A DNA stretch of 64,000 nucleotides, taken from NCBI RefSeq assembly GCF_004124235.1, contig NZ_CP032487.1, forward strand, positions 2,480,001 to 2,544,000, read 5' to 3'. The notes under the pieces are model-generated. The model saw only the letters and a list, made by a program, of their open reading frames with translations. It did no database searches and was not told the DNA's origin. The stretch is from Yersinia hibernica. Lineage in GTDB: Bacteria; Pseudomonadota; Gammaproteobacteria; Enterobacterales; Enterobacteriaceae. Of this stretch, positions 23,440 to 59,854 are shown piece after piece (position 1 is the stretch's first letter; the number at the start of each line of letters is the position of its first letter). A program made the position numbers and the translations under genes.

Positions 23440-23487
23440 TTTTGAATGAATTTTTGCTTTCTTATTTGACGCTAAACACCATCAAAA

Positions 23488-23679
23488 ATGTTGCCGACCA
23501 AGGCTGTAGGCCGCATGAACACGGCGAAAGGGGCTGCCGAGCTGAGTGCGTCTGGCCCCGGTTCAGTTAGCCGGCAAACTGCCGGGGCGGCGGAATATTT
23601 CGTGCCGTGCGGGATTGCAGGGGTGCAGCTAGCTTGGGTGGTGGATTCGTCGCAGGTCAAGTCAGCGATAACCCACTAA
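23488..23679 (+). CDS. Doubtful small GC-rich ORF, 63 residues
   Basis: An ATG-started frame between sanA and hypC encodes a small Ala/Gly/Ser-rich protein with no signal peptide and no known motif. The opposite strand is open too, as expected in GC-rich DNA. The local GC content is clearly higher than in the AT-rich flanks, so the segment may be a conserved non-coding element or RNA, or the end of a displaced gene. There is no obvious ribosome-binding site. Confidence 0.25.
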   Translation: MLPTKAVGRMNTAKGAAELSASGPGSVSRQTAGAAEYFVPCGIAGVQLAWVVDSSQVKSAITH

Positions 23680-23717
23680 TCACCAAATCACGTCCCCCCA
23701 TCAGTGCAGCCATAAAA

Positions 23718-23996
23718 CTATCCCCGCTGCCCTAAAAATGCCGCGACATCACTTTCAACCTCCCCCATTTCTTGTAATAACTGTAATGTTTCCAATGCCT
23801 CATCTTCATCTAACCGGCTCATGGCAAAGCCCACATGCACCAAAACCCAATGGCCGATGAGTGCATAACTTGCCGGTGCATCCGCAGCCACCAGCATAAT
23901 ATTCACCGCACGGCGCACACCACAAACATCCACCCAAGCCGTACCCGGCTGAGTCTCATCCAGCGCGACAATTTGCCCCGGGATCCCTATGCACAT
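23718..23996 (-). CDS. hypC: Hydrogenase maturation chaperone HypC/HybG
   Basis: 92-residue chaperone that carries the Fe(CN)2CO unit with HypD and binds the hydrogenase large-subunit precursor. The essential N-terminal Cys2 is present (MCIGIPGQIV), followed by the OB-fold pattern and GHWVLVHVGFAMSRLDEDEA. It lies downstream of hypA, 40 bp apart, transcribed away from the hyf operon. Only hypA and hypC are here; hypB, hypD, hypE and hypF must be elsewhere. Confidence 0.93.
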   Translation of the reverse strand: MCIGIPGQIVALDETQPGTAWVDVCGVRRAVNIMLVAADAPASYALIGHWVLVHVGFAMSRLDEDEALETLQLLQEMGEVESDVAAFLGQRG

Positions 23997-24036
23997 AATC
24001 TGGCTCCCACGCTATCAGGGCATAAAAAAAGTAAAT

Positions 24037-24384
24037 TCATTCCACCTCCAACCGCTTAAGTATCACGCCATCATCAGCCGCACCCAGGTGTAAATGGCTC
24101 CCGGCACACCATGGGCAGCGAGTGACTTTATTGCTAAGCAAATTAACGTGTCGCTGACAGTCATGACACCATACTTGCGATGCTTGCTGGCTAAGATGCA
24201 AAACACAACCTTCAGCCAAAGTGCCACGGCACACCAATTCAAAACAAAATTCCAGTGCCTGCGGCTCGACACAAGAAAATGCGCCAGTTTCCAGCCATAC
24301 CCCGGTAATTCTCTGCGCACCATGCAACCGTGCCTGCTGTTCCATCATGGCAATCGCGTTTTGGCACAAGGTTATCTCATGCAT
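24037..24384 (-). CDS. hypA: Hydrogenase nickel-insertion protein HypA
   Basis: 115 residues. With HypB it delivers Ni to the [NiFe] hydrogenase precursor. The protein must start MHE because His2 binds nickel, which settles the start at the ATG 24382-24384 rather than the GTG three bases upstream. The zinc site is two CxxC pairs (CHDC and CPWC) in the C-terminal half. GVWLETGAFSCVEPQALEF matches E. coli HypA closely. A sigma-54 promoter lies about 37 bp upstream. Confidence 0.95.
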   Translation of the reverse strand: MHEITLCQNAIAMMEQQARLHGAQRITGVWLETGAFSCVEPQALEFCFELVCRGTLAEGCVLHLSQQASQVWCHDCQRHVNLLSNKVTRCPWCAGSHLHLGAADDGVILKRLEVE

Positions 24385-24420
24385 CACCCTTCTCCCAATA
24401 GCGGCTCTCTGGCAAAAACA

Positions 24421-24437
24421 TGCAAGGACAATGCCAG
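24421..24437 (-). promoter_or_regulatory. Sigma-54 (-24/-12) promoter of hypA-hypC
   Basis: Minus-strand sequence CTGGCATTGTCCTTGCA has GG and GC separated by exactly 10 bp and a perfect TTGCA -12 box. It lies about 37 bp upstream of the hypA start. Activation by the FhlA-type protein encoded at 39370-41529 is inferred. Confidence 0.82.
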
Positions 24438-24518
24438 TAATATAATATCGCCCGCCGGCTCGCCACTTACCCTAACAAGCTAATAAATAAGCTTATTTAC
24501 CACTAGCCATGGGTGATG

Positions 24519-24590
24519 AATTCGTAACAGAGATAAACACTGTCGAAGTGTCATCGGCAAACTCCAGTTTCGTCACTAATGTCGACATTT
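24519..24590. promoter_or_regulatory. Candidate activator (FhlA-type) binding region
   Basis: Between the two divergent sigma-54 promoters are several related motifs: TTCGTAAC (24521), TGTCGAAGTGTCA (24541), TTTCGTCAC (24568) and the palindrome TGTCGACA (24580). FhlA sites in E. coli are built from TTTCGT/ACGAAA- and TGTCGA-like half-sites. The clustering and position 80-210 bp from both promoters suit an upstream activating sequence shared by hypA and hyfA. Confidence 0.4.
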
Positions 24591-24704
24591 AACCCCGCCA
24601 AATACACTGTTTTTGCTGCCGTTTAAATCCCCTGGCTTTTATCTGCCCCCCCTAATGCACAGCTGACGGGCTCTCACCGCTCTTTTGCTGCTGCGGCTAA
24701 CGTA

Positions 24705-24721
24705 CTGGCACAGAATATGCT
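24705..24721 (+). promoter_or_regulatory. Sigma-54 (-24/-12) promoter of the hyf operon
   Basis: CTGGCACAGAATATGCT fits the -24/-12 consensus with GG and GC exactly 10 bp apart and a full TGGCAC -24 box; the -12 box has one change (ATGC for TTGC). It lies about 65 bp upstream of the hyfA start. Confidence 0.82.
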
Positions 24722-24786
24722 TTGGTGCTGGCAAATGATTTCTATCAGCCTGATTGTCACCAAATTTTGTCCCGGAGGGTATGGCT

Positions 24787-54699: not shown

Positions 54700-54841
54700 A
54701 TTATATAGCAAACACCAGAATTTGACCTATTATGCCAATAACTCACAACCTGTTATTTGAATAATTAATAGTTTAAATCTTACAACTAACATGGCGAAAA
54801 AAACATTGATAAAATTGGAGAAAAGAATTACAAGTAAATAG

Positions 54842-54863: not shown

Positions 54864-54899
54864 TCACATCTAAAGGAAATCATTAAAATTGAGAGTTAT

Positions 54900-55097
54900 A
54901 TGCACACTTTACATCAACACGATGAGAAAACAAAAAACGCCAATTTAATAATATTAAAAGCCAAGTTGGAATCTTTAGAAAAATCATTTAAGAACAATAC
55001 ATTCACTATAAGTAACGATGATATTGCACACCTAACAAACAGTAATTTCAATAATAAAATAACCGCATGGAATTGGTCAAAAAGTTTTTCACAATAA
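54900..55097 (+). CDS. darA: Darobactin precursor peptide DarA
   Basis: 65-residue precursor with a polar, Lys/Asn-rich leader and the C-terminal end KITAWNWSKSFSQ. Residues 57-63 (nucleotides 55068-55088) read WNWSKSF, identical to the core of darobactin A, the bicyclic peptide antibiotic that jams the BamA insertase of Gram-negative bacteria. In the known system the radical SAM enzyme DarE joins the two Trp and the Lys by ether and C-C links. The frame is open from an ATG at 54846, but that codon is inside a hairpin and lacks a Shine-Dalgarno; the ATG at 54900 with GAGA before it fits known precursor sizes. Genes for transport follow. The maturase is lost, so the peptide is probably not processed here. 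Confidence 0.92.
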   Translation: MHTLHQHDEKTKNANLIILKAKLESLEKSFKNNTFTISNDDIAHLTNSNFNNKITAWNWSKSFSQ

Positions 55098-55151: not shown

Positions 55152-55264
55152 TAATTAATCAGCTAACTACCATAATGGAAACATCATATACATTGATATG
55201 ATACAGCAAAAAACGCCAATAATAATATCACTAGACTTTATTAAAACCAGTGAGATATTTCTAT

Positions 55265-57654
55265 ATGCTAACAAGTGAATTTTTCGATGATTTGAAAATC
55301 AACCCAATATCAAACCTATTAGCGATAGTCGTAACTGCTATTGGATTAATCTCATCATTTTTTGTTTTACTTCTTTATTTAACTGATTATCGTATTGAAA
55401 AGCAGCATGACAACTACAAAGATATTTATCGGATAGAAACACAGTTTAATCTACCTAATGGCGATGAAATAAAATCTGCACAAGCCCCCTTACCACTCGC
55501 GGCTGTATTAAAGAATGACAGAAATATCAAGCGGGTGGATTCTATTGTACGTATTTTTACCCGTTTACAATTTAACGGTAGAACACATTCAAATGTTGAT
55601 ATCTATGCAGTAAGTGATGATTTCTTTAATACAATCAATCCGTTACAACAAAAACCACCTCATCTGACGCATAATGAAATTATTATTACCCCAGAGTTTA
55701 ATCGCCAATATCTTCAGTTAGACAATCCGCAAGGGCATATCATTACATTAGGTGATAGAGGGCAATTTCTTATTAAGGATGTGCTTGATCTCGATAAATC
55801 CAGTCGCTTTAAAACTGGAGCTTTCATCATATTTTCTCCAGAATTAATAGCGGGTTACCATGATAAAGGCACGATTGGTATGATACCCATGTCTATCTTT
55901 TTATCACTATGCAGCCGGGTAATGAACCAGACCTCGATCAATTGAACTCGCACGTTAAACAATACGCGCCCCAACTCCCGGGAGCCCCCTTTAGCCCCGA
56001 AGAATTTATTCAATTATCTGTCCGTAATATTGCTGATATCCATTACGATAATGCCCTGCCAGATGAGATAAGCTCAGTTATTTCAACTACACATTTAATT
56101 TTTTTATATACTTCTGGTTTATTTGTTTTTTTAACCACCACCATGAACTTCTTTAGTATTAATAGCCTAATTAATAAAAATAAGAAAAATAGTTTCTATG
56201 TGAAAAAAGCTGTAGGGGCCTCTCAATATCAGCTGTTGAGAGAATCATTTTTCATTGCAACACTACAAACTGTATTTATGTTGCTATTAGTCCTTTTCAC
56301 TTTAACATCACTGATACAGCTATCTGATAGTGCTAGAGAAATTATACTCCTTCAAGGTAGCCGAGACTTATTAACTGCATTCTCTATTACCTTATCTGCA
56401 ACTTATATCACTATTTTACTTACTCATACTTTATTTTTGGTTACTCTCACTCGCCCTAAAAATACCTATTACAGTGATATGTACACTCAACAACCTTGCA
56501 TGCAAAACCTCATATTTTATTACAAATTATCGTTGCAGGAACCATTATTTACTTATGGGCTGGCATAATGACACAACTGCATTTCATGCAGAACAATAAC
56601 TTTGGTTATGAAAAAGAAAACATTATGACATTTGCATTAACTGATGAGCTAAAATCGCAAACATTAATAAATAGGTTAAAAAATGAATTAAATGAAATAA
56701 TTAACATAGACGACATCGCAATGAGCAGTTGGCGACCATTTGATATGTCAATAAATAAAACCTCGGTATACCATAACAATCAACAGGAAAAAGACAAACT
56801 CATTACAGTTAATACTCTTAATGTAAATAAGAGTTTTATTAAAACATGGGGGATAAAAACACTTTCTGGAAATGAAAACCTAATACTACCGAGTACCGAG
56901 TACCGAGTACCGAGTACCGAGTACCGACAGTAATATACATCACGCCATTGCCACTAAGTCTTTTATCGCATTAATGGGGCTAGATACATATGAACAGGTA
57001 CTGAACAACTTATTCTATATTAACGAAAATGGCTCACTACAGACAGTGAGAATCCTAAGCATAGTTGATGATTTTTTTCTTGCAGATCGAGATGAGGCAC
57101 CTTCTCCATTAATTATTTTTATTCAAGATGGTGTTCAGCGTTATGCAGCAATCAAGCTAAATAACCTAAGCGATCTTGGCACTGCAGAGAAAATCTTAAA
57201 ATACTATCATATCAGCCCAGAACAAATAAAATCAGTCCGTAACTTGCATCAAGAACACTTTAACAATGAAAATCTAATAAAAAACACCATTAACACAGTC
57301 ACATCAGTTTCAATTGTATTGATAATAATAAGCACAGTTATAGTTAGCATGGCTGAAGCAAAACGGCTAAATAAGACATTGCAGATAATGGAGTCAATTG
57401 GTGGTTCTATTTATACCAATATAATATTTTTCATACAACATAACCTAATTCATATAATAATAGCCGCAGGAATATCTCTTCCTATCAGTCTTTTACTATT
57501 GCGCCACTGGCTAAATCAGTACCATTGGGTTACTGGCGTATCTTATATTTATGCTACCAGCGCACTCTTTAGTTTCATTTTAAGTATCATTGTCATGATG
57601 ACTATCACACTTATCTTTAGCAATAAGATATTAAAAATCGGGAAAAACAAATAA
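55265..57654 (+). pseudogene. darB: darB, FtsX-type ABC permease, broken by three frameshifts
   Basis: Four consecutive fragments in three frames make up one MacB/FtsX-like permease: 55265-55945, 55909-56568, 56496-56933 and 56974-57654. The first break is at a T5 tract (55898-55902); one added T restores IFFITMQPGNE. The second is at a T4 tract (56515-56518); one added T restores NLIFLLQIIVAG. The third is the 7-bp repeat array at 56888-56927; four fewer copies restores LPSTDSNIHHAIATKSF. After these corrections the length is 2364 nt, a multiple of three, giving 787 residues. N-terminal and internal membrane helices and the C-terminal FtsX helices are recognisable. A GTG at 55250 is another possible start. 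The product would export darobactin with DarC and DarD. Confidence 0.85.
56888..56927 (+). repeat. 7-bp tandem repeat (ACCGAGT)x5 inside darB
   Basis: Five full copies of ACCGAGT (56888-56922) plus ACCGA. The array causes a frame change and a stop 6 bp later (TAA 56931-56933). A single copy, or four, would keep the frame open. A unit of 7 bp shifts frame with each slippage event. Confidence 0.95.
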
Positions 57655-57659
57655 TATTT

Positions 57660-58922
57660 ATGGATACAAAAATTGAACAAAGAAGATTTATAAATAAAAA
57701 TGCTAAATTGGTCATTATCTGCATTCTATTACTGCTTATCGGCAGTCTTTATTCTATTTATTACTTATCAACAACTCAACGCACTTTACTCGTTTCTCGC
57801 GAAGATGTTACTTTTCATATAATCACCCCTGAGGTATATCAAGAATTACTGATTACCAGGGCGATTACAATACCCAAGGAGAGCATAATCATCTCAAATG
57901 AGCATGGTGGAAAAGTCATTGAGATTACAAAACAAACCTTTGACACAGTAACTAAAGGCGATGTTATTGCAAAATTGTCGAACTATGATTTTATGCTGGA
58001 AGCGACATCCAGAATAGCGAGTATCGCTGAAAAAATAAACAATCTTCATAATATGAAAATACTACTTTCACAAGATAATCGAGATACAAAAATAAGATTA
58101 CAAGAAGCAGAACATCAGACAACGGTCATATCAAAAGAGTTAAGAAAGCATCAGATTCTTGATAAAAAATCAATGATTACAAAATCCGAGTTAGAAAATC
58201 AAATCGATATGTTACAAAATTGGCAAACAAAACTAGATATATTGCGCGAACATAATGATAAGAACAAAGAAACATTGCCCTCACAATTTAGAAGCATTGA
58301 GGACTCTATTTCATTACTTGAGAGAATGATGAAAATGACAGAAGAGAGCATGAGCCAGCTTGTGATAACTGCGCCTATAGATGGCACATTATCAGTTTTG
58401 GATATTGAGTTGGGTCAGCAGATAAAGTCTGGAGAAAAAATTGCGGTAATAGATAATTTAGAATCATATTATTTTAATGTTTACTTTAGTGAGTATTATC
58501 TCGATAAGATAATACCTCAGAGCCATATTGTTTCACAAATAAATGGCCAAGAGATCCCACTTCTTATCGAATCAGTCTCTAGTATTGTTGAAAATGGAAA
58601 ATTTAAAGCTAAATTAATACCGTATCAAGATAGCATCTCCCGCCTTAAAAGAGGGCAATCAATTGAAATAAAAATATCATTACAAGAAGATAATAATGTT
58701 GCATTACTAGTACCAACAGAAAGTATTATCTCGGAAAAAAATGGTAACAGCTTCATCTATATTTACCAGTCAGAAAAAAACCAAGCCATTAAGTCAAAGA
58801 TAGATATCAAACGAAAACGCGGGCTAAAAACAGAAGTCACGGCAGGATTAATAGCAGGACAACAGATTGTTATTCCTCCTGATAATAACAATAATGAATA
58901 CGATATTATCGAGTTTAAATAA
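57660..58922 (+). CDS. darC: DarC, HlyD-type membrane-fusion protein
   Basis: 420-residue periplasmic adaptor of the HlyD/MacA type. One N-terminal membrane helix (about residues 15-35, LVIICILLLLIGSLYSIYYL) is followed by a lipoyl-like part, a long coiled coil (about 125-240) and the second lipoyl half (LVITAPIDGTLSVLDIELG) with a beta-barrel. It is intact, AT-rich and lies 5 bp after the darB fragments. The family role is to link the inner-membrane ABC exporter to an outer-membrane channel. Confidence 0.85.
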   Translation: MDTKIEQRRFINKNAKLVIICILLLLIGSLYSIYYLSTTQRTLLVSREDVTFHIITPEVYQELLITRAITIPKESIIISNEHGGKVIEITKQTFDTVTKGDVIAKLSNYDFMLEATSRIASIAEKINNLHNMKILLSQDNRDTKIRLQEAEHQTTVISKELRKHQILDKKSMITKSELENQIDMLQNWQTKLDILREHNDKNKETLPSQFRSIEDSISLLERMMKMTEESMSQLVITAPIDGTLSVLDIELGQQIKSGEKIAVIDNLESYYFNVYFSEYYLDKIIPQSHIVSQINGQEIPLLIESVSSIVENGKFKAKLIPYQDSISRLKRGQSIEIKISLQEDNNVALLVPTESIISEKNGNSFIYIYQSEKNQAIKSKIDIKRKRGLKTEVTAGLIAGQQIVIPPDNNNNEYDIIEFK

Positions 58923-58923
58923 C

Positions 58924-59583
58924 ATGCTAAAAATACAAAATGCTGAAAAGTGTTATATCACTAAAACAATAAAAACCAAGGTTCTTAACCATCTTAATTT
59001 CTCTGTAGAAAAAGGGGATTTTGTTTCGATCATGGGTCCATCAGGATCAGGTAAATCGACACTGCTCAATATCATTGGCATGTTTGATAACTTGGATAGT
59101 GGATCGTTAGCTATCGCGGGGCAAGAAATCACGAACTTGAGCCACTCACAGAAAGTCATTATAAGAAGATCGCTAATAGGGTATATTTTACAATCATTTA
59201 ATCTTATACCCCACTTATCTATCTTTGATAATATTGCTTTACCTCTTAAATATCGTGGTGTCAGCAAAAAAGATCGTATTGAACGAGTAAATCATGTTTT
59301 AAATCTATTCGATATTGATAACCGAAAAAATCATAAACCAATACAATTATCAGGAGGTCAGCAACAACGAGTGGCCATTGCCCGGGCAATGGTATCTAAA
59401 CCCGAATTACTTTTAGCTGACGAACCCACTGGAAATTTAGACAGCAAAAATGTCCATGCGGTACTTCAGCAATTAAAATATATAAATGAAAATGGCACGA
59501 CCATTATTATGGTCACGCATTCAAATGATGCTGCCACTTATGGAAACAGAGTAATAAACATGAAAGATGGACATCTTATATAA
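58924..59583 (+). CDS. darD: DarD, ABC transporter ATPase
   Basis: 219-residue ATPase of the LolD/MacB type. Walker A GPSGSGKS (near residue 40), signature LSGGQQQR and Walker B LLLADEPTGNLD are intact, with the H-loop in VTHS. The start is the ATG at 58924, one base after the darC stop; an upstream in-frame TTG inside darC is not needed. It energises the permease encoded by the broken darB. Confidence 0.88.
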   Translation: MLKIQNAEKCYITKTIKTKVLNHLNFSVEKGDFVSIMGPSGSGKSTLLNIIGMFDNLDSGSLAIAGQEITNLSHSQKVIIRRSLIGYILQSFNLIPHLSIFDNIALPLKYRGVSKKDRIERVNHVLNLFDIDNRKNHKPIQLSGGQQQRVAIARAMVSKPELLLADEPTGNLDSKNVHAVLQQLKYINENGTTIIMVTHSNDAATYGNRVINMKDGHLI

Positions 59584-59587
59584 CTAA

Positions 59588-59854
59588 AGTGATAAAAACA
59601 GTATTTATGGTTCATTACTGCATACAGATTTAGCCGACCTCTTAGCCCTCTCATCCCATAATCAACAAGCCGTCGGTGAGGAAAAAGCAGCTACTCAAAA
59701 AATGCAGTATTGCCGGTGGTTTTCTATTTGTCATGGTGGTTGCCCCCATGACCATATTATAAATCGCAAACATTCTGACGGATATAATGATACATGTTGT
59801 GGGACTGGGCATTTGCTGGCTACCATCCAAAATTATATAGCCAATAACTACTGA
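59588..59854 (+). pseudogene. darE: 3' remnant of darE, radical SAM/SPASM maturase
   Basis: An 88-codon frame without a start codon begins 4 bp after darD and ends at TGA 59852-59854. It reads IYGSLLHTDLADLLA, then CRWFSICHGGCPHDH and YNDTCCG. This is the C-terminal SPASM pattern of radical SAM peptide maturases (C-x5-C-x3-CP, then a later C). The position where the first Cys of a CxxC would stand is Met. The N-terminal part with the CxxxCxxC [4Fe-4S] motif is absent, so a deletion removed most of the gene, with its left end at or just after the darD stop. The gene order after darD and the motif point to darE. Confidence 0.8.

What the first reader, a model, noticed from the sequence alone, without database searches (positions are those of the whole stretch)
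54900..55097. Darobactin A precursor (core WNWSKSF) in a Yersinia-like chromosome
Seen: a 65-residue peptide ends KITAWNWSKSFSQ, and its residues 57-63 equal the seven-residue core of darobactin A. It heads an AT-rich run of permease, membrane-fusion and ATPase genes in the order darA-B-C-D. Established: darobactin is a ribosomally made, radical-SAM-modified BamA inhibitor first found in Photorhabdus, with related operons reported in other genera including Yersinia. Inferred: this locus is a member of that family. The core is unchanged although other genes of the cluster are broken.
Basis: partly seen in the sequence, partly recalled or inferred. Interest (0 to 1): 0.95.

Follow-up and report, generated by a model that had tools for sequence, protein, structure and literature searches.

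The report
Broken darobactin antibiotic cluster in Yersinia
This Yersinia genome still encodes the raw peptide for the antibiotic darobactin A, but the enzyme that turns it into the drug has been deleted except for its tail, so the locus is most likely a decaying remnant of a known cluster.

Summary
Window 54900-55097 encodes DarA: NCBIfam darobactin_RiPP, E 1.1e-21, 76.6 bits against a cut-off of 45. The leader resembles DarA even without the core. darB, darC and darD follow. No other DarE was found in the genome. darB is in four pieces and carries a private 7-bp repeat array. With no synthase, darobactin is very unlikely to be made. The unchanged core is not evidence of function (P of no change about 0.57 at the remnant's rate).

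Of 25 Yersinia genomes, 18 have DarA and 14 a whole DarE. Four, the window included, hold DarA without a whole DarE. One (G015) keeps only the exporter darBCD. All 14 loci with whole DarE keep an unbroken darB; 4 of the 6 without it do not (Fisher P 0.003, not corrected for kinship). This fits loss of synthesis before loss of export. The family is known; this is a decayed member.

The parts
54806..54834 (+). promoter-like element TTGATA-17-TACAAG, 94 bases before the darA start
   Evidence: TTGATA with a 17-base spacer and a TAC/TAA-type -10 stands 86-104 bases before darA in 18 of 18 loci. Promoter function inferred, not tested.
54900..55097 (+). darA, darobactin A precursor peptide (65 aa, core WNWSKSF at residues 57-63)
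   Evidence: NF038004, E 1.1e-21, 76.6 bits, cut-off 45; only copy in the genome. The GGAG ribosome-binding core seen in 14 of 18 loci is not there in the window, nor in G011, G019 and G020, whose darE is whole.
55265..57654 (+). darB, exporter permease, broken into four frame pieces (ORFs 55250-55945, 55909-56568, 56496-56933, 56974-57654)
   Evidence: NF038008 model positions 1-196, 211-411, 415-544, 560-777 of 777 by piece; same
56887..56927 (+). 7-bp tandem repeat array, 5.9 copies, inside broken darB
   Evidence: TRF 100% matches; three-unit pattern found in 1 of 25 Yersinia genomes, at this place only; four relatives shown have no array there
57660..58922 (+). darC, periplasmic adaptor of the exporter, open over its full length (420 aa)
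   Evidence: NF038010, E 4.1e-209, model 1-417/417
58924..59583 (+). darD, exporter ATPase, open over its full length
   Evidence: NF038007, E 7.6e-130, model 1-218/218
59591..59854 (+). darE remnant: C-terminal SPASM part of the radical-SAM synthase, 87 codons, no start codon of its own at the front; the first about 349 codons with the radical-SAM domain are deleted
   Evidence: tblastn with six Yersinia DarE: residues 350 to 434-436, 71-81% identity; NF038005 model 350-432/432, E 5.7e-40, 137 bits against a cut-off of 650; sole DarE match in the genome

Best explanation
The locus is a decayed darobactin A (daropeptide) cluster at the ancestral Yersinia site between frmB and the MFS/DUF924/moeA genes. 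It once made a DarA precursor that DarE crosslinked into the bicyclic BamA inhibitor and DarBCD exported. In this lineage one deletion removed darE from just behind darD to about codon 349 (shown), and darB broke in at least three places, one of them a 7-bp repeat expansion (shown). Without the radical-SAM domain no crosslinks can form, so no darobactin is made (inferred from published work that DarA plus DarE suffice and are needed). darA, darC and darD are still open because the decay is recent (inferred from few private changes). Across the genus the synthase is broken or lost in each of the five decayed loci where the 3' end can be read, while the exporter is unbroken in 14 of 14 loci that keep the synthase, as expected if losing export while still making the antibiotic would be harmful (inferred).
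For: DarA family hit; leader homology; darE stub and no second DarE; darB in four pieces; same site in relatives with whole clusters; nearest sister in the tree, G006, has a whole DarE (support 100), so the loss is on the window's own branch; remnant still 71-81% identical with no stop inside; 4 private changes at 52 otherwise invariant columns, the most of 15 sequences, but G011 with a whole DarE has 3 of 51; among the 120 listed DarE relatives of 396 the best match to the remnant is 81%, so no close intact copy was seen. DarA and DarE as the sole essential genes: PMC8694152, section 5 read.
Against: darC and darD are full length and show little or no relaxation (dN/dS 0.08-0.14 and 0.06-0.11 against other genomes, with dS near saturation; DarC branch twice that of its neighbour G024), and darA's core is intact in all four loci without whole DarE, which could also mean selection on something. 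Only one genome of the species could be read; the databases hold other sequences of the same darA and darC (P0001, 4 members; P0126, 3 members), whose surroundings were not seen, so the loss may not be fixed in the species. Expression and products were not tested.
Confidence: 0.9

Rival explanations
1. darA with darC and darD is kept by selection for another job: the unmodified peptide, or the remaining exporter parts, does something without DarE.
For: darA, darC and darD open and darA core intact; in G015 the whole exporter persists without darA or darE.
Against: darB is broken in at least three places, so the exporter cannot be whole; the core would be unchanged by chance with P about 0.57 at the remnant's rate; in E. 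coli the unmodified DarA of P. khanii is cut down to its leader (PMC9055067, passages).
Confidence: 0.05
2. The cluster is switched on and off: the 7-bp array in darB changes copy number and shifts the frame (phase variation).
For: 5.9 perfect copies of a 7-bp unit inside coding sequence, found in 1 of 25 Yersinia genomes.
Against: darB has two further frame changes outside the array, and darE is deleted, which no repeat change reverses. No second allele of the array was seen.
Confidence: 0.02
3. Sequencing or assembly errors make a working cluster look broken.
For: Reads are not available; short frame changes are typical of some long-read assemblies (general knowledge).
Against: The darE deletion is about 1 kb and neatly bounded; the four flanking genes frmB, MFS, DUF924 and moeA are open; 88% of the window lies in stop-free frames of 150 codons or more; genome 100% complete in 2 contigs.
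Confidence: 0.02
4. The precursor is matured in trans by another radical-SAM enzyme of the cell and darobactin A is still made.
For: DarE enzymes accept varied precursors (PMC9055067, section 8 part 1 read).
Against: The DarE model, loose enough to match 9 of 14 control genomes below its cut-off, finds only the stub in this genome; a full DarE query finds only the stub too.
Confidence: 0.01

Closest known systems
Yersinia daropeptide clusters (Y. frederiksenii, Y. enterocolitica, Y. bercovieri, Y. rohdei and others; Table 1 of PMC8694152, section 5 read)
   Same: Same precursor family, same core WNWSKSF, same gene order darA-B-C-D-E, same chromosomal site in the loci compared here
   Different: The window's DarA is none of the 18 sequences of that table; its darB is in pieces and its darE is a stub
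Darobactin A cluster of Photorhabdus khanii (L061; its DarA equals the P. khanii row of Table 1)
   Same: Core WNWSKSF and order darA-B-C-D-E
   Different: DarA 37% identical over 65 aligned positions; there darBCDE are full-length matches
Other decayed Yersinia dar loci found here: G001, G008, G017, G015, G002
   Same: Same site in the four with frmB, MFS or moeA on the same stretch, and darE broken, cut or absent
   Different: Different lesions: darE split into two frames (G001), only residues 1-69 left plus stops in darB and darC (G008), darE absent plus breaks in darB and darD (G017), darA and darE absent with darBCD open (G015), only the first 84 residues or so of darB left (G002)

Membership tests
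Darobactin / daropeptide RiPP cluster | DarA-type precursor with leader and W-x-W-x-K/R-x-F core near the C terminus | tested here: met
   NF038004 76.6 bits over cut-off 45; core WNWSKSF; leader homology without core
Darobactin / daropeptide RiPP cluster | Radical-SAM/SPASM maturase DarE that installs both crosslinks | tested here: not met
   Only model positions 350-432 of 432 remain, 137 bits against a cut-off of 650; the radical-SAM domain is deleted; no other copy in the genome. By descent a member, by function not a producer.
Darobactin / daropeptide RiPP cluster | DarBCD exporter encoded between precursor and maturase | tested here: inconclusive
   All three genes in place and order; DarC and DarD over their cut-offs, DarB only as four pieces under its cut-off
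Darobactin / daropeptide RiPP cluster | Homologous whole clusters at the same place in close relatives | tested here: met
   14 of 25 Yersinia genomes have DarE over the cut-off; same neighbours in the loci mapped
Darobactin / daropeptide RiPP cluster | Production of a bicyclic heptapeptide that binds BamA | not testable with these tools
   Needs culture, mass spectrometry and a BamA assay

The most novel reading that the evidence does not exclude
In Yersinia the daropeptide locus decays in an addiction-like order: the synthase goes first and only then may the exporter go, because making the antibiotic without export is harmful. Exporter-only alleles such as G015 (Y. mollaretii-like) then persist as immunity against daropeptides of neighbouring strains, and precursor-only loci such as the window are the other end state.
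Probability: 0.25. Interest if true: 0.5.

Novelty: new member of a known kind. Interest (0 to 1): 0.3.

Why it matters
Genome mining that starts from the precursor or its core alone would count this strain as a darobactin A producer; it is very unlikely to be one. Four of 18 Yersinia DarA loci surveyed lack a whole DarE, which may be part of the reason why predicted Yersinia producers gave no compound in a published screen (PMC8694152), although that screen also used species whose genomes here have a whole DarE. The spread of whole, precursor-only and exporter-only loci over one genus makes the question of who pays for and who is protected by DarBCD directly testable.

Tried and rejected
Plasmid-borne copies: tblastn of DarA against 72,556 plasmid records, no match at E up to 1. 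Selection test by dN/dS: pairwise dS is near or beyond saturation for most pairs, so it says little about the window's own branch; private changes at invariant columns were used instead and show at most weak relaxation. Upstream start for darA: the 83-residue frame from 54846 and a start at 54888 were considered; 14 of 18 loci have GGAG six bases before the ATG aligned with 54900, so 54900 was kept. The window has ATT at 54888 where several relatives and a database variant (P0001) have ATG. Phase variation by the 7-bp array was considered and set low because darE is deleted. G023 was dropped from all counts of loss: its frmB contig ends 82 bases after frmB and its DarE piece runs to a contig end, so the locus lies in an assembly gap. 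G009, G016, G021 and G014 have no match to the DarA and DarB models; G009, G014 and G016 none to the DarE model, and G021 only a below-cut-off match. Darc and DarD were not searched genome-wide there. The tree rests on four flanking genes; five genomes (G009, G014, G016, G021, G023) enter with frmB alone, and several deep nodes have support under 70. The DarE model also matches other radical-SAM enzymes: 9 of 14 control genomes below the cut-off, 0 above. BamA of these genomes was not examined.

Full report
1. What is there. The window lies at 2480001-2544000 of the larger contig of a 4,803,435-base, 2-contig genome. NCBIfam NF038004 (darobactin family peptide antibiotic) matches residues 20-64 over the full model, E 1.1e-21, 76.6 bits, cut-off 45. 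With the core and follower removed (first 52 residues) the peptide still matches Y. enterocolitica DarA at 52% (E 1.2e-17); matches to DarA of Pseudoalteromonas (E 7e-6), Photorhabdus (E 0.001) and Vibrio (E 0.1) grow weak. It is the only DarA in the genome, and tblastn found none in the plasmid collection.

2. Neighbours. darB (55265-57654) is in four frame pieces that together match nearly the whole DarB model; darC (57660-58922) and darD (58924-59583) are open and over their cut-offs. A 7-bp unit repeated 5.9 times sits in broken darB at 56887-56927. A three-unit pattern of it occurs in 1 of 25 Yersinia genomes, only here, and the four relatives looked at have no array at that place.

3. 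The missing enzyme. In the six named Yersinia loci with readable 3' ends (L002-L007) a 435-441 aa frame follows darD by 15-18 bases; the one tested, of L002, is DarE at 841 bits. In the window, tblastn with these six DarE finds residues 350 to 434-436 at 59591-59851, 71-81% identical, with no stop inside, eight bases behind the darD stop. Its best model match is DarE 350-432/432, 137 bits against a cut-off of 650. So the start and the radical-SAM domain are gone and only the SPASM tail is left. A DarE query and the DarE model find nothing else in the genome. The control for the model: below its cut-off it matches 9 of 14 control genomes, above it none, so it is loose enough that a diverged copy should have shown.

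4. Genus survey. Of the 25 Yersinia genomes held, 18 have DarA over the cut-off, 14 DarE over the cut-off, 16 DarB over the cut-off. Status of the 25: 14 with DarA, DarB and DarE (G003-G007, G010-G013, G018-G020, G022, G024; in G004 darB runs off a contig end); 4 with DarA but no whole DarE (the window G000, G001, G008, G017); G015 with open darBCD and no darA or darE; G002 with a darB stub; G009, G014, G016, G021 without DarA or DarB match; G023 not scorable because of an assembly gap. The 18 cores are 12 WNWSKSF, 5 WNWSRSF and 1 WSWSKSF, all of them published kinds (PMC8694152). The loci lie beside frmB and before the MFS, DUF924 and moeA genes; the MFS gene is not on the stretches of G004, G005, G007, G018 and G020.

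5. Independent losses. In a maximum-likelihood tree of four flanking genes the window's sister is G006 (support 100), which has a whole DarE; G008 is sister to G011 (100), whole DarE; G014 is sister to G013 (100, but G014 rests on frmB alone), whole DarE. At least these three losses are therefore separate events. The lesions differ as well: C-terminal stub in the window, N-terminal 69 residues in G008, two frames in G001, nothing in G017 and G015. G001 is a draft of 210 contigs and its single frame change could be a sequencing error.

6. Order of loss. Over the 20 scorable loci that hold any dar gene, darB is unbroken in 14 of 14 with whole DarE and in 2 of 6 without it (Fisher exact P 0.003). 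The test ignores kinship, and the categories were set after seeing the data. No locus was seen with whole DarE and a broken exporter; darC and darD were likewise free of stops in all 14. This is what one expects if the exporter protects the producer. In G015 the exporter is open in all three genes and the promoter-like element is kept although darA and darE are gone; its DarC is 92-96% identical to the five database clusters named Y. mollaretii, and its DarC and DarD branches are shorter than those of its sister sequence G013. No DarE named Y. mollaretii is among the 120 of 396 relatives listed. That exporter-only loci are kept for immunity is an inference.

7. Is the core kept by selection? 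At 52 columns that are otherwise invariant the window's DarE stub has 4 private changes, the most of 15 sequences (next 3 in G011, whose DarE is whole); darA has 1 of 17, darC 6 of 127, darD 1 of 117. At 4 of 52 the chance that seven residues stay unchanged is about 0.57. So an unchanged core is expected and says nothing about function. The window does lack the GGAG ribosome-binding core that 14 of 18 loci have, but so do three loci with whole DarE.

8. Literature. The family and its presence in Yersinia are published: PMC8694152 (passages; section 5 read) lists 11 Yersinia precursors among 18 and reports that five predicted producers gave no detectable compound; PMC9055067 (passages; section 8 part 1 of 2) shows Y. 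intermedia DarA crosslinked by its DarE. The searches 'darobactin'+'Yersinia' (24 papers), 'darobactin'+'pestis' (7), at least three of 'darobactin', 'biosynthetic gene cluster', 'Yersinia', 'pseudogene' (62, of which 15 listed), 'daropeptide' (6), 'darobactin'+'DarBCD' (4) and the self-resistance search (6) showed no title or abstract start on decayed dar loci; apart from the two papers above and passages of PMC9125672 their texts were not read. The discovery in Photorhabdus and the BamA mechanism are recalled and also stated in the abstract of PMC8694152.

9. Verdict. A true, recognisable member of the darobactin family by descent; by function most likely a non-producer.

Noticed in passing
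L056 (G046), L057 (G190), L058 (G273), L060 (G308): DarA-like peptides under the family cut-off (28-30 bits) with core WNWSKGF, followed by darBCD matches and darE matches (darE cut short in L056; L057 runs off the stretch). The core word WNWSKGF is in 0 papers of the library. G308's contig length equals that of an 'uncultured Cedecea sp.' entry.
   Followed up: partly
L062 (G258): DarA over the cut-off with natural core WNWSKAF next to darBCDE matches; contig length equals a Martelella alba entry. The word WNWSKAF is otherwise in one paper of the library, on engineered darobactins (PMC10107326, listing only).
   Followed up: partly
L040 (G015): Exporter-only locus: darBCD open, darA and darE absent, promoter-like element kept; DarC 92-96% identical to clusters named Y. 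mollaretii.
   Followed up: partly
L028 (G001): DarA identical to the 'Y. aldovae, type D' row of Table 1 in PMC8694152, but darE lies in two frames (residues 1-215 and 211-434). Y. aldovae ATCC 35236 was one of the five strains screened without success there; whether G001 is that strain, and whether the break is real, is not known.
   Followed up: partly
window 54888-54890: The window has ATT four codons before the darA start; a database variant of the same peptide (P0001, contig of 3807 bases) has Met there, so other sequences of this lineage exist and vary.
   Followed up: no
window 54806-54834: TTGATA-17-TACAAG stands upstream of darA with TTGATA unchanged in 18 of 18 loci, and is also kept in G015, where darA is gone.
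   Followed up: partly
window 23440-24753: The only stretch of more than 600 bases in the window not covered by a stop-free frame of 150 codons or more.
   Followed up: no
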